This document shows positions 19,242 to 23,160 of a stretch of 64,000 nucleotides of DNA, one piece after another (position 1 is the stretch's first letter; each line of letters begins with the position of its first letter). The position numbers and the translations under genes are program-made. This DNA is from Nocardioides seonyuensis. Lineage in GTDB: Bacteria; Actinomycetota; Actinomycetes; Propionibacteriales; Nocardioidaceae. The stretch covers positions 3,100,001-3,164,000 of the forward strand of contig NZ_CP038436.1 of NCBI RefSeq assembly GCF_004683965.1, written 5' to 3'. A model generated the notes under the pieces. It worked only from the letters and a program-made list of their open reading frames with translations, was not told the DNA's origin and made no database searches.

Positions 19242-19278
19242 ATGAGAGGCCTCTCATCGGCGCCTCACGGGCCCCTCA
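19242..19278 (+). promoter_or_regulatory. complex operator, copy 1 (palindrome plus phased CTCA)
   Basis: Perfect 16-bp palindrome ATGAGAGGCCTCTCAT at 19242-19257. CTCA occurs at 19253, 19264 and 19275, exactly 11 bp apart, all on the strand of the downstream gene. The same design, with the same palindrome core, occurs at 23123-23160 before the acidic-protein/histidine-kinase operon. Repeats phased at one helical turn are usual for OmpR/PhoB-family response regulators, so binding by the regulator at 20601-21275 is inferred. It lies 26 nt after the tRNA and 63 nt before the Asp-rich gene. Confidence 0.6.
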
Positions 19279-19340
19279 CGCCGGCGGAGCAACGTAGTCC
19301 TCGTCCACCGGGCCAGCCGGCCCCGACGAGAGGAACTGCC

Positions 19341-19715
19341 ATGAGAAAGCTCATCCCCACTGCTCTGCTCGGCGTTGCGAGCGCGACAGTCATCGGCCTG
19401 ATCGGCATGCAGGCCCCCACGGTCCAGGCGGCTGATGACGCCGTCAAGCGGGAGGAGGACCAGGTCGAGCTCGTGCTCGTGGCCGACGACGATGACGACG
19501 ACACCAACGACGACGACACGGACACCCGCACCGGCCAGTCGCGGGAGAGCAACGACAACACCAACTCGCGCTACTCCAAGGTTAGCCGCGACAAGGACCG
19601 CAGCCGTGGCGACAAGACCCGCGACTGGACCCGCGACGGCAAGACCGACAAGAAGAAGCGCGACTGGTCGGCGAACTCGACGAACGACCGCAGCCGCAAC
19701 GACACCCGCGGCTGA
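19341..19715 (+). CDS. exported Asp-rich low-complexity protein
   Basis: Protein of 124 aa. Residues 1-31 form a Sec signal peptide (MRKLIP, then a hydrophobic core to VQAAD). The mature part has a run of aspartates near 49-61 (ADDDDDDTNDDDTDT region) followed by a 60-residue tail rich in Arg, Lys, Asp, Ser and Asn with no predicted fold. GAGAGGAA precedes the ATG. The frame upstream to 19242 runs through the operator and is not coding. It is followed after 2 nt by the kinase gene, so they are probably one transcript. No family recognised. The acidic run might bind divalent cations; that is inference. Confidence 0.82.
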   Translation: MRKLIPTALLGVASATVIGLIGMQAPTVQAADDAVKREEDQVELVLVADDDDDDTNDDDTDTRTGQSRESNDNTNSRYSKVSRDKDRSRGDKTRDWTRDGKTDKKKRDWSANSTNDRSRNDTRG

Positions 19716-19717
19716 CC

Positions 19718-20614
19718 ATGACCATGACGGAGACCAGGCAGCGGGCCGACTCGTGGGGCTTCACCGAGGGTGACGCCCTCACGCCGGACCTCACCGGGCT
19801 GCGCAGGCTGGGGGGCGGTGCGTCGTACGAGGCGTGGCTGGCCTTCGACGAAGTGACCTACTCGTCCGTCGTGGTGAAGCTGCTGCGCCCGAACCAGCTG
19901 GACTCCTCCTCCTCGCGGCGCGGACTGCGCCGCGAGGTGGAGGCGCTGGCGAGGGTGAACCACCCCGTCGTCGTACGCGGCCTGCGCCACGACGACGACG
20001 GGCCGCGGCCACACGTCGTGCTCGAGCACATCGAGGGGCCCAGGCTCTCGACGTTGATCCGACGCTACGGTCCGCTGCAGGAGCAGCAGTACCTTCCGCT
20101 GGCCATCGACGTGGCCTCGGCGCTGCACTACCTGCGCCACGTCGGGTGGACGCACCTCGACATCAAGCCCAGCAACGTCATCATGGGCTCGCCGGCGCGC
20201 CTCATCGACCTGTCGGTGGCGCGCCCCGAGGGCGACGCCCGCAACCTGCGCCACCCGATCGGCACAGATGCCTACATGTCGCCGGAGCAGTGCGACCCGG
20301 GGGAGACCAACCCGCCCACCCACGCCAGTGACGTGTGGGGCCTGGGGGCCACCCTGTTCGAGGCGGTCTCCGGGGAGCGCGCGTTCCGGAACGGCGACCC
20401 CGACGCCGACGCTCTGGTCGATCGGTTCCCGCAGGTGGCCGAGGAACCGGCCGCGCTGCCGGCCGGAGTGCCCGGAGAGGTCGTCGAGGTGATCACGGCG
20501 TCGCTGCAGCGCGACCCCGCGCGGCGCCCCCTGCCGCACGAGGTCGTCGACGCCCTCGAGCCCGTGCTGGCCCGCCAGCCCCGCGGCTCGCTCGCGGGAT
20601 TCAAGGTGCGGTGA
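19718..20614 (+). CDS. cytosolic Ser/Thr protein kinase with atypical DFG
   Basis: Protein of 298 aa consisting almost only of a Hanks-type kinase domain, without the membrane anchor or PASTA repeats of PknB. Seen: glycine loop GGGASYEAW (32-40), ATP lysine Lys54, alpha-C Glu73, catalytic loop HLDIKPSNV (146-154; Arg of HRD replaced by Leu), metal-binding Asp164 in DLS instead of DFG, and MSPEQ for the APE region. The Asp residues needed for catalysis are kept, so activity is plausible. The last 14 nt overlap the convergent response-regulator gene. ATG at 19724 is an alternative start. Probably co-transcribed with the Asp-rich protein gene. Confidence 0.88.
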   Translation: MTMTETRQRADSWGFTEGDALTPDLTGLRRLGGGASYEAWLAFDEVTYSSVVVKLLRPNQLDSSSSRRGLRREVEALARVNHPVVVRGLRHDDDGPRPHVVLEHIEGPRLSTLIRRYGPLQEQQYLPLAIDVASALHYLRHVGWTHLDIKPSNVIMGSPARLIDLSVARPEGDARNLRHPIGTDAYMSPEQCDPGETNPPTHASDVWGLGATLFEAVSGERAFRNGDPDADALVDRFPQVAEEPAALPAGVPGEVVEVITASLQRDPARRPLPHEVVDALEPVLARQPRGSLAGFKVR

Positions 20615-21275: not shown

Positions 21276-22738
21276 GTCTGCTCACCCCTCCGTGGGACTC
21301 GGATCTCGACGTGGACCCCGGGTGACGGCCGGGCGTCCTCGATGCGTACACCACCGCCGTGCGCGTCGGCAATCGCTGCCACGATGCTGAGGCCGAGACC
21401 GAAGCCCTCGTCGCCGGAGCGGACGCGGCTGCGAGCGAAGCGCTCGAGCACCGCCTCGCGGTCGGCGGGCGGGATGCCGTCGCCGCTGTCACGCACCCAC
21501 AGGCGTACGACGTCGGCCTCGACCGCCGACCCGACGGCCACCGTGTCGCCGACGTCGGTGTGCTTCACGGCGTTGTCCGCCAGCTGCAGCATCGCCTGGG
21601 TGATGCGCTGCTGGTCGAGGCTGACGGTCTCGCGAGGGGCCTCGTCGAGGACCCACTCGCGGTCGCCGAGCGCGCGGGCCTTGGCCAGGACCGTCTCGGT
21701 GAGGTCGGCCAGGTCGACCTCCTCGAGGGTGACGAAGTCTGGTCGCCGGCTCTTGGCCAGCAGGATCAGGTCACCGACGAGACGCCCCATCCGGTCGACC
21801 TCCTCCAGGAGCAGCTCGCGGGTGGCTGCCACGTCTGCGGTGTCGGTCGGGTCGACGAGCTCCAGGTGGCCGCGGAGCACCGTGAGCGGCGTCTTGAGCT
21901 CGTGCCCCGCGTCGTCGAGGAACTGCCGCTGCCCGACGAAGGCCGACTCCAGCCGGTCGAGCATCCCGTTGATGGTCCTCGTGAGAGCGGTGATGTCGTC
22001 GTTGCCGCTCTCGGGGATGCGGCGGTCGAGACCCGTCTCGGTGATCTCCTCCGCCGTCTCGCGCAGGCGCCGTAGGGGAGCCAGCAACCGACCGGACTGG
22101 AAGGCCGCGATCAGGGCGATGAGCAGGACGCTCACGAAGGCCACCACCGCGTAGGTCGTCATCGTGCGGTTGAGCTCCTCGTGCTCGTCGTCGAGGAACG
22201 TGACCAGGGCCAGTGCCCCGGAGTCGGTCGTGCGACCCGCCGCGTCCTGGGTCTGCATGGGCACCACGGTGAGCCAGATCTCGCCGTACCGGTCGTGCTG
22301 CAGCGTGCCGAACCCGCCGTCCTCGATGAGGCGCTCCAGCTCGGAGCGGTAGGCCGGGTCCTCCAGGACGTCCTCCCCGTGGCGGTTGCGGGTGCGGAGG
22401 GTCGCGTCACCCTCGGCGTAGCCCACGAGCATCTCGTCGTCGTCGGGGACGTTGCGGCTCAAGAAGACCTCCAGGAGCCGCTGGACGTCCCGGAAACGCT
22501 CGCCGGTGAGGGGGTCGTGGCTCAGCTCTCGCAGCTCCGCGACCTCCTGCTCGATCTGGGCGCGCGCACGCTGGTCGATCCGGTCGGACTCGAGGGCGTA
22601 GACGACGACCCCTGCCCCCAGCATCGCCAAGGACGTGAGCACCATGATCGTGACCACGATGCGCGTCCGCACCGACCGGAGCCACTGCGGTCGCGGCCGC
22701 TGCCCGGCTGCGGGCGCGGCCGGGCGCTGGGACGTCAC
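21260..22738 (-). CDS. membrane sensor histidine kinase (MprB-like)
   Basis: Protein of 492 aa from GTG 22738. Two transmembrane segments near residues 26-48 and 195-214 enclose an extracytoplasmic sensor of about 145 residues, acidic and without a family I recognise. HAMP region follows, then the phospho-acceptor His279 in DDAGHELKTPLTVLRGH, N-box QLADNAVKHT, G1 RDSGDGIP and G2 GFGLGLS. GTG 22738 starts one base after the stop of the upstream acidic-protein gene; an ATG at 22786 would add 16 residues but overlap that gene by 47 nt. Neither start has a clear SD, so coupling is likely. Confidence 0.94.
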   Translation of the reverse strand: MTSQRPAAPAAGQRPRPQWLRSVRTRIVVTIMVLTSLAMLGAGVVVYALESDRIDQRARAQIEQEVAELRELSHDPLTGERFRDVQRLLEVFLSRNVPDDDEMLVGYAEGDATLRTRNRHGEDVLEDPAYRSELERLIEDGGFGTLQHDRYGEIWLTVVPMQTQDAAGRTTDSGALALVTFLDDEHEELNRTMTTYAVVAFVSVLLIALIAAFQSGRLLAPLRRLRETAEEITETGLDRRIPESGNDDITALTRTINGMLDRLESAFVGQRQFLDDAGHELKTPLTVLRGHLELVDPTDTADVAATRELLLEEVDRMGRLVGDLILLAKSRRPDFVTLEEVDLADLTETVLAKARALGDREWVLDEAPRETVSLDQQRITQAMLQLADNAVKHTDVGDTVAVGSAVEADVVRLWVRDSGDGIPPADREAVLERFARSRVRSGDEGFGLGLSIVAAIADAHGGGVRIEDARPSPGVHVEIRVPRRGEQTWPRS

Positions 22739-22739
22739 G

Positions 22740-23099
22740 TCAGTCGTCGTCGTCCCGGCTGTCGTCACCCCGGTCCTCACGGTCATCTTCTCGATCGTCG
22801 ACCTCGGTGGGCTCGGGGATCACGACCCGGACGTCGTCATCCTCGTCGTCATCATCCTCCACCTCAGGAGAGGCCTCGCGCGTCGCCTCAGGCGTCGGCT
22901 CGGCCGGCTTCCCCCGTCGAGGCCCGTCCTGGCGCCGCTCGCCCCGCTCGCTTGGAACAGCCTGCTCGGCCTCGTCCTGCAGGACGATCGGCGCGAGCTG
23001 CGTCGGGGCGGCCGGGCTCTCCGCGAGCACACCGGCGGCGTAGGCCCCCGCGATGACGAGGACGCCCAGGGGGACGAGGAGGAGCTTCCAGAAGGGCAT
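22740..23099 (-). CDS. membrane-anchored acidic low-complexity protein
   Basis: Protein of 119 aa. Residues 1-28 begin MPFWKLLLVPLGVLVIAGAY, a signal anchor or signal peptide. The rest is low complexity: a linker rich in Glu, Arg and Pro, then Glu/Asp runs (EVEDDDDEDDD near 84-94) and a C-terminus of DDRED/DDD repeats. It is the first gene of the operon leading to the histidine kinase and response regulator, and has operator copy 2 upstream. It resembles the exported Asp-rich protein at 19341 in composition, not in alignable sequence. ATG 23099 is chosen because translation from 23249 would pass through the operator. No family recognised; a ligand or metal-presenting partner of the sensor is a guess. 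Confidence 0.75.
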   Translation of the reverse strand: MPFWKLLLVPLGVLVIAGAYAAGVLAESPAAPTQLAPIVLQDEAEQAVPSERGERRQDGPRRGKPAEPTPEATREASPEVEDDDDEDDDVRVVIPEPTEVDDREDDREDRGDDSRDDDD

Positions 23100-23122
23100 G
23101 GGGACATGATCCTGCCCGATGG

Positions 23123-23160
23123 TGGGACCGAGGTGAGTGGTGGATGAGAGTCCTCTCATC
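23123..23160 (-). promoter_or_regulatory. complex operator, copy 2 (palindrome plus phased CTCA)
   Basis: Perfect inverted repeat GATGAGAG-TC-CTCTCATC at 23143-23160. On the minus strand CTCA elements fall at 23148, 23137 and (as CCCA) 23126, again at 11-bp steps towards the acidic-protein gene, which starts 44 nt away. This is the same layout as copy 1 at 19242-19278. It sits in the divergent gap between that gene and the acyl-CoA synthetase at 23248, so it could affect either. Confidence 0.6.

What the first reader, a model, noticed from the sequence alone, without database searches (positions are those of the whole stretch)
19242..23160. Two copies of one complex operator flank a kinase / two-component / acidic-protein locus
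At 19242-19278 and, inverted, at 23123-23160 there is the same layout: a perfect ATGAGAG-NN-CTCTCAT palindrome followed towards the gene by CTCA elements exactly 11 bp apart (19253, 19264, 19275; and on the minus strand 23148, 23137, 23126 with the last as CCCA). The genes they face are both small exported or membrane acidic low-complexity proteins. Between the two lie a Ser/Thr kinase and an MprAB-like histidine kinase and OmpR-type regulator. OmpR-type regulators bind repeats phased near one turn. I infer a compact, self-regulated signalling locus not described in the form I know.
Basis: partly seen in the sequence, partly recalled or inferred. Interest (0 to 1): 0.72.

Follow-up and report, generated by a model that had tools for sequence, protein, structure and literature searches.

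The report
Conserved paired operator of signalling locus
Two copies of one unusually long DNA switch sit at the two ends of a small bacterial signalling locus; the same switch, with the same promoter spacing, recurs beside the same kind of regulator in many actinobacteria, which points to a widespread control circuit that I did not find described.

Summary
The palindrome plus 11-bp CTCA repeats occurs at 19242-19278 (+) and 23159-23123 (-) and nowhere else in the 3.97-Mb genome. All 23 same-genus relatives carrying the histidine kinase have such an element at both ends of the locus; in 20 the repeats show both pointing inwards. None of 13 relatives without the kinase has the exact palindrome (p=2.4e-7). 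Elsewhere in Actinobacteria the pattern lies near orthologous regulators or kinases (53 of 80 loci), and a third repeat, a -10 at fixed offset and a start codon at offset 60/61 (44 of 86 sites) recur unsearched for. I read it as the operator of the locus's own OmpR-type regulator: four half-sites (one inverted, three direct) ending where PhoB-type activators replace the -35, driving a leaderless acidB-HK-RR operon and a leadered acidA-kinase operon. The palindrome has the 7-2-7 layout of the E. coli CusR box. 'MprAB-like' is not supported. Binding, activation and signal are inferred or unknown. New variant of a known kind.

The parts
19145..19218 (+). tRNA-Val (TAC); upstream neighbour, not part of the system
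   Evidence: ARAGORN
19242..19278 (+). Operator A: inverted half-site TGAG (19243-19246), direct half-sites CTCA at 19253, 19264, 19275; the first two half-sites lie in the 7-2-7 palindrome
   Evidence: score 19-22 of 22 in the 16 relatives' loci; present in 23 of 23 relatives
19290..19295 (+). Predicted -10 (CAACGT, pattern NANNNT at offset 48-53) of the acidA promoter; predicted start of transcription near 19302
   Evidence: offset conservation; inference
19341..19715 (+). acidA: probably exported protein, 124 aa, signal-like N-terminus, Asp run, conserved RDWT/RDWS...TNDRSRNDTR half; no Pfam family above cut-off
19718..20614 (+). Ser/Thr protein kinase, 298 aa; catalytic K54, E73, H146, D148, K150, N153, D164 kept in 34 of 34 aligned kinases (DFG reads DLS)
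   Evidence: Pfam PF00069 4e-32
20601..21275 (-). OmpR-type response regulator (Response_reg + Trans_reg_C), GTG start
   Evidence: orthologue group
21260..22738 (-). Sensor histidine kinase, GTG start one base after the acidB stop, overlaps the RR start; HAMP, HisKA, HATPase; alpha/beta sensor domain between two long helices
   Evidence: model
22740..23099 (-). acidB: one hydrophobic N-terminal segment, Pro-rich linker, Asp/Glu-rich tail; no Pfam family
23106..23111 (-). Predicted -10 (GATCAT, offset 48-53) of the acidB-HK-RR promoter; start codon at offset 60 (leaderless)
   Evidence: inference
23123..23159 (-). Operator B: palindrome 23159-23144, CTCA at 23148 and 23137, CCCA at 23126

Best explanation
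The two elements are the paired operators of the locus's own OmpR-type response regulator. Shown by sequence and comparison: each operator is a fixed array of four CTCA-type half-sites (one inverted, then three direct, 10-11 bp apart), followed by a -10-like element at offset 48-53. It stands at both ends of the locus in every same-genus relative found to carry the kinase, and beside orthologous regulators across Actinobacteria. Inferred: phosphorylated regulator binds the palindrome as a head-to-head dimer (as a palindrome suggests for CusR), further monomers bind head-to-tail on the direct repeats, and the last one sits where sigma region 4 would hold a -35 element, so RNA polymerase is recruited as by PhoB (class II activation). 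This switches on two converging operons: acidB-HK-RR (positive feedback, leaderless mRNA) and acidA-kinase. Speculative: the sensor kinase and membrane-anchored Asp-rich acidB sense a cationic or envelope signal, and the output is exported Asp-rich protein plus a kinase.
For: Only two sites in the genome. 23 of 23 kinase-holding same-genus relatives have an element at both ends, in 20 clearly pointing inwards. Palindrome against kinase presence in 36 same-genus relatives is 20/3/0/13, Fisher p=2.4e-7; the three exceptions carry sites of 19-20 of 22 before acidB. Sites before the genes score 15-22 of 22 against 10-13 for the best match inside the genes. Class sample: pattern in 37 of 394 genomes, this one included, reversed control in 0 of 394. 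53 of 80 pattern loci hold the RR or HK. Features not used in the search recur: third repeat YYCA at +33 in 56 of 86 (mean 0.9 per offset at 40-104), A49 in 65 of 86, T53 in 77 of 86, start codon at +60/61 in 44 of 86. 34 regulators of Actinobacteria, the window's included, form one group (support 100/98) apart from the 9 paralogues of this genome that were put in; paralogues are at most 44% identical. CusR box AAAATGACAAnnTTGTCATTTT has the same 7-2-7 layout (passage of PMC11195947).
Against: No binding or expression data. Three relatives (G001, G011, G015) keep the palindrome but not the direct repeats at the acidB side (15 of 22), and at least two (G017, G030) keep the repeats with a poor left arm, so neither part is strictly needed. 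NANNNT at offset 48-53 is missing in 8 of the 48 sites printed (my count). 27 of 80 pattern loci show no RR/HK above the thresholds in the fetched stretch; in eight of these the stretch ends within 500 bases downstream, others may be unlinked targets or chance. Regulators beside the Chloroflexota and delta-proteobacterial sites fall outside the main group, and L072 and L073 inside it have only weak sites (17 of 22). OmpR-family regulators usually bind direct repeats (established knowledge).
Confidence: 0.82

Rival explanations
1. Two proteins share the element: the palindrome is bound by a separate dimeric repressor or by another regulator, and only the direct CTCA repeats are bound by the OmpR-type regulator.
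For: The palindrome alone is kept at the acidB side of G001, G011, G015; OmpR-family regulators classically use direct repeats (established knowledge; PolR and Streptomyces PhoP use 11-bp direct repeats, passages of PMC6754071).
Against: The palindrome arm contains the same CTCA, in the same 11-bp register as the direct repeats; CusR, an OmpR-family regulator, binds a palindrome of identical layout (passage); palindrome presence follows the kinase.
Confidence: 0.13
2. The regulator represses rather than activates: its array over the -35 region blocks polymerase, and the locus is opened by dephosphorylation or by a competing activator.
For: The array lies next to the -10; CutR in Streptomyces both activates and represses by position (passages of PMC12802291).
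Against: No -35 hexamer is conserved between half-sites 2 and 3, so the promoter probably needs an activator; the spacing resembles PhoB-type class II activation (established knowledge).
Confidence: 0.15
3. It is the actinobacterial MprAB envelope-stress system with its MprA boxes.
Against: No MprA/MprB model among the 25 best NCBIfam rows shown for each protein; no HtrA/PepD-type gene noticed by eye among the ORFs at 17000-26000.
Confidence: 0.05
4. Chance, or a structural RNA/terminator element after the tRNA gene.
For: One copy follows a tRNA gene.
Against: The only tRNA gene in the window is beside the other copy; no T run; it lies before a -10-like element; kept in 23 of 23 relatives and across Actinobacteria.
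Confidence: 0.01

Closest known systems
CusRS / CopRS / CzcRS heavy-metal two-component systems (CusR box)
   Same: OmpR-type regulator; palindromic box of identical 7-2-7 layout (E. coli AAAATGACAAnnTTGTCATTTT, passage of PMC11195947); few sites per genome; best NCBIfam models for both proteins are TIGR01387 and TIGR01386
   Different: Scores below the curated cut-offs (199 of 279.2 and 185.7 of 292.55 bits); arms GAGAG/CTCTC; added direct repeats; Asp-rich proteins and a kinase as neighbours, no metal efflux gene noticed by eye
PhoB/PhoP pho box and PolR of Microlunatus
   Same: Direct repeats 11 bp apart (PolR and PhoP: passages of PMC6754071); standing in place of a -35 (class II geometry, established knowledge)
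   Different: PolR site GTTCACn5GTTCaC, no inverted half-site; different genes
MprAB
   Same: General domain layout; CTCA-like repeats (recalled)
   Different: No family model among the rows shown; palindrome; target genes
CutRS / CssRS of Streptomyces
   Same: Actinobacterial two-component systems with few targets and an extracellular sensor
   Different: CutR site is TAWATAAA (passages of PMC12802291)

Membership tests
OmpR/PhoB-family response regulator | Receiver domain plus winged-helix Trans_reg_C | tested here: met
   PF00072 2.4e-25 and PF00486 2e-26
HAMP-HisKA sensor histidine kinase | HAMP, HisKA, HATPase_c | tested here: met
   model pLDDT 89.7, membrane placement inferred
CztR/SilR/CopR heavy-metal regulators (TIGR01387) | Score above curated cut-off 279.2 | tested here: not met
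   199 bits
CztR/SilR/CopR heavy-metal regulators (TIGR01387) | Palindromic operator with 2-bp centre | tested here: met
   against the CusR box quoted in PMC11195947
CztR/SilR/CopR heavy-metal regulators (TIGR01387) | Adjacent metal efflux or oxidase genes | tested here: inconclusive
   None noticed by eye among ORFs 17000-26000; neighbours were not family-searched
MprAB | Orthology to characterised MprA/MprB | tested here: inconclusive
   No such model among the 25 best of 103 and 81 NCBIfam rows; no direct comparison run
MprAB | Neighbouring HtrA-type protease | tested here: inconclusive
   None noticed by eye among ORFs 17000-26000
Class II (PhoB-type) activated promoter | Repeats in place of the -35 at fixed distance from the -10 | tested here: met
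   (geometry only; activity not testable here)
Eukaryote-type Ser/Thr kinase | Catalytic Lys, Glu, HxDxKxxN, DFG Asp | tested here: met
   34 of 34 aligned kinases, L059 and L060 left out
Regulator binds the operator | Direct binding | not testable with these tools
   Co-occurrence only

The most novel reading that the evidence does not exclude
A phylum-wide 'polyanion regulon': one sensor system, read out by a composite inverted-plus-direct operator, that answers a cationic or envelope signal by making anionic polymers at the cell surface. The output would be exported poly-Asp proteins and, in the second operon, a protein kinase (Nocardioides, Aeromicrobium), an APH-fold kinase (Promicromonosporaceae, Saccharomonospora) or a DUF4956-VTC polyphosphate-polymerase pair (Brevibacterium, G056), with membrane-bound poly-Asp acidB as an accessory sensor.
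Probability: 0.2. Interest if true: 0.78.

Novelty: new variant of a known kind. Interest (0 to 1): 0.6.

Why it matters
A regulator, its likely operator, its promoter geometry and its small target set can be named together for a large group of Actinobacteria, so a string search predicts targets in a new genome. It joins two binding modes seen separately in OmpR-family regulators (palindrome as in CusR, 11-bp direct repeats as in PhoB/PhoP) in one operator. It also gives first leads for families without a Pfam match (acidA, acidB, an APH-fold protein) and ties DUF4956/VTC genes to a signalling system in two lineages.

Tried and rejected
MprAB identity: no supporting model among the rows shown. 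CutR and PolR sites: different sequences. Terminator or tRNA-linked element: the second copy has no tRNA gene beside it and there is no T run. Defence kinase: the STK matches PADLOC kinase profiles (PD-T4-6 1e-42, mad6 4e-42), which I take as generic protein-kinase similarity; defence genes nearby were not searched for. Full-model fold search of the histidine kinase: the 50 rows shown are kinases matched mainly over the catalytic core, nothing specific on the sensor. acidB homology search found only 6 proteins, the window's own or a near copy included, although locus comparison shows acidB-like proteins widely; low complexity probably hides them.

Paper searches were read as listings and abstract starts only, most of them capped: 11 of 11, 30 of 39, 20 of 116, 12 of 42, 4 of 4, 15 of 33, 2 of 2, 15 of 2,252, 1 of 1 and 10 of 172 papers shown. 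None of the listed titles describes this operator. The one paper concerns the MarR-type CrtR and was not opened. In PMC8249747 none of the terms sought was found. The library lacks most subscription journals, so this is weak evidence that the operator is unpublished.

Own-genome search for sites lacking the left arm gave three further partial matches with 1-2 mismatches, while the reversed control pattern also gave 1 match on each strand, so they are at chance level. One stands before an ECF sigma/anti-sigma-like pair (L202), one is a CTCAG-N6-CTCAG promoter-like site (L203), one was not analysed (L204).
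Full report
What was claimed and whether it is there. Every stated coordinate is right: palindromes at 19242-19257 and 23144-23159, CTCA at 19253, 19264, 19275 on the plus strand, and 23148, 23137, 23126 (CCCA) on the minus strand. With 3 mismatches allowed the window has only the two exact copies. The complete 3.97-Mb genome has only these two exact palindromes and no match to the reversed control; palindrome plus one repeat with up to 3 mismatches finds the same two, and one of the palindromes read antisense.

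Gene layout. acidA (19341-19715) and a Ser/Thr kinase (19718-20614) are read rightwards; acidB (23099-22740), histidine kinase (22738-21260) and response regulator (21275-20601) leftwards, with gaps of one or two bases or overlaps inside each operon. Pfam supports kinase, regulator and histidine kinase; acidA and acidB match no family above cut-off.

Conservation in the genus. The exact palindrome is in 24 of 58 genomes searched, this one included; 20 of the 36 same-genus relatives. The histidine kinase (E up to 1e-60) is in 35 of 58, this one included; 23 of the 36. Counted together by hand the 36 split 20 both, 3 kinase only, 0 palindrome only, 13 neither (Fisher p=2.4e-7). The three kinase-only genomes carry sites of 19-20 of 22 fixed bases before acidB. 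In all 23 kinase-holding loci and the window one element stands at each end. Scores are 18-22 of 22 except on the acidB side of G001, G011 and G015, where it is a perfect palindrome with poor repeats (15 of 22) whose direction the repeats do not fix; in the other 20 both elements point inwards. In G010 the kinase gene is about 4.6 kb from the regulator and its site lay in a separately fetched stretch. In G004 no STK was found and the second site faces a His-rich small protein. The best score inside the neighbouring genes was 10-13 (which covers 21 HK and 16 STK genes; loci whose gene call failed are not in that table).

Spread beyond the genus. RR of at least 55% or HK of at least 35% identity lies in 53 of the 80. 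Of the other 27, eight stretches end within 500 bases downstream of the site, and some hold other parts of the system (STK and acidA in L093 and L140). In an even sample of the class the pattern is in 37 of 394 genomes, this one included, and the reversed control in 0. A tree of 46 regulators puts 34 of Actinobacteria, the window's included, together with support 100/98; the 9 paralogues of this genome and the 3 Chloroflexota/delta regulators fall outside. So sites in those phyla may be chance or independent. Among the 34, L072 and L073 come from loci with only weak sites (17 of 22), and G039 (L048) has the palindrome without the CTCA repeats. The tree program warned of long branches among the paralogues.

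Promoter anatomy. Aligning 86 sites, features that were not in the search pattern stand out: YYCA at offset 33 in 56 (CTCA in 26; means of 0.9 and 0.3 per offset at 40-104), A at 49 in 65, T at 53 in 77, and ATG/GTG at 60 or 61 in 44. Within the genus, A49 and T53 each hold in 17 of 18 acidB-side sites, and in 14 and 16 of 16 acidA-side sites, scoring 18 or more; NANNNT is at that place in 40 of the 48 sites printed (my count). So one -10 position serves both promoter kinds. The acidB kind starts translation where transcription should start (leaderless); the acidA kind has a leader with a ribosome site. No -35 is conserved. With the start at +1 the half-sites centre near -57 (inverted), -47, -36 and -25, which resembles the class II arrangement of PhoB-type activators (established knowledge).

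Targets elsewhere. The first gene after the site is a small protein with a hydrophobic N-terminus in 85 of 103 gene calls over the genus loci and the loci (starts guessed by rule, some clearly wrong frames included). Others are: a protein without Pfam match (L129, L097, L125) in Promicromonosporaceae, Saccharomonospora and others, aligned; the L129 member's model (pLDDT 86.5) matches maltokinase and macrolide/aminoglycoside phosphotransferases (best E 2e-9, query TM-scores mostly 0.3-0.5); a DUF4956 gene followed by a VTC-domain gene in Brevibacterium; DUF4956 followed by a VTC-like ORF (by eye) in G056; a glycosyltransferase-like gene in Microbacterium (Pfam just below cut-off) and Arthrobacter (by eye); and ABC exporters (L139 by Pfam; others by eye). 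Thus the second operon often holds a kinase of one kind or another, or in two lineages a polyphosphate-polymerase-like pair.

What it works like and what it is. The palindrome matches the CusR box layout (passage of PMC11195947); the direct repeats match the pho-box principle. The regulator scores best with the heavy-metal regulator model but below its cut-off, so it is not filed there. MprAB is not supported. acidA is conserved outside its Asp run (120 homologues); the homology search gave 600 proteins at E up to 0.001, and in the 120 listed every name given is hypothetical or uncharacterized protein. The STK keeps its catalytic residues in 34 of 34 (L059 and L060 left out).

Limits. All statements on binding, activation, leaderless transcription and signal are inference. 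That I found no published description rests on ten searches of an open-licence library, most with capped lists. Four papers were opened with term searches only (PMC6754071, PMC12802291 and PMC11195947 gave passages, PMC8249747 none).

Noticed in passing
L202 (own genome, contig 1, 509572-509599, -): CTCA repeats without palindrome before an ECF sigma-like gene and an anti-sigma-like gene (named by eye), with TAGCCT at the same -10 spacing; perhaps a site of another OmpR regulator, but the control pattern scores as often.
   Followed up: partly
L203 (own genome, contig 1, 403492-403519, -): CTCAG-N6-CTCAG followed 15 bases on by TAGGCT and then a GTG; same spacing as repeats 2 and 3 here, without the palindrome.
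   Followed up: no
L109 702-4866; L046 6979-11034: acidB-HK-RR followed by the operator and a DUF4956-VTC pair in Brevibacterium and in an order-level relative (VTC by Pfam in L109, by eye in L046; acidB-like protein of L109 by eye).
   Followed up: partly
L129 3690-7976: Saccharomonospora has the same two-operon layout as the window with an APH-fold protein in place of the Ser/Thr kinase.
   Followed up: partly
L114 965-6758: In an Arthrobacter MAG the site stands before three glycosyltransferase-like genes (by eye) and an ABC exporter (Pfam).
   Followed up: partly
L155 5283-5318; L145 291-326: Bidirectional form: one palindrome with a CTCA repeat on both sides, so that it could serve two divergent genes.
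   Followed up: no
G012 and G023 histidine kinase genes: Kinase match interrupted (one in-frame TGA in G012; split match in G023). Left as found.
   Followed up: no
L146 2776 (cyanobacterium), L134 2936 (myxobacterium): Exact pattern outside Actinobacteria; L146 has a TTCA third element; no RR/HK above threshold in either stretch. May be chance.
   Followed up: no
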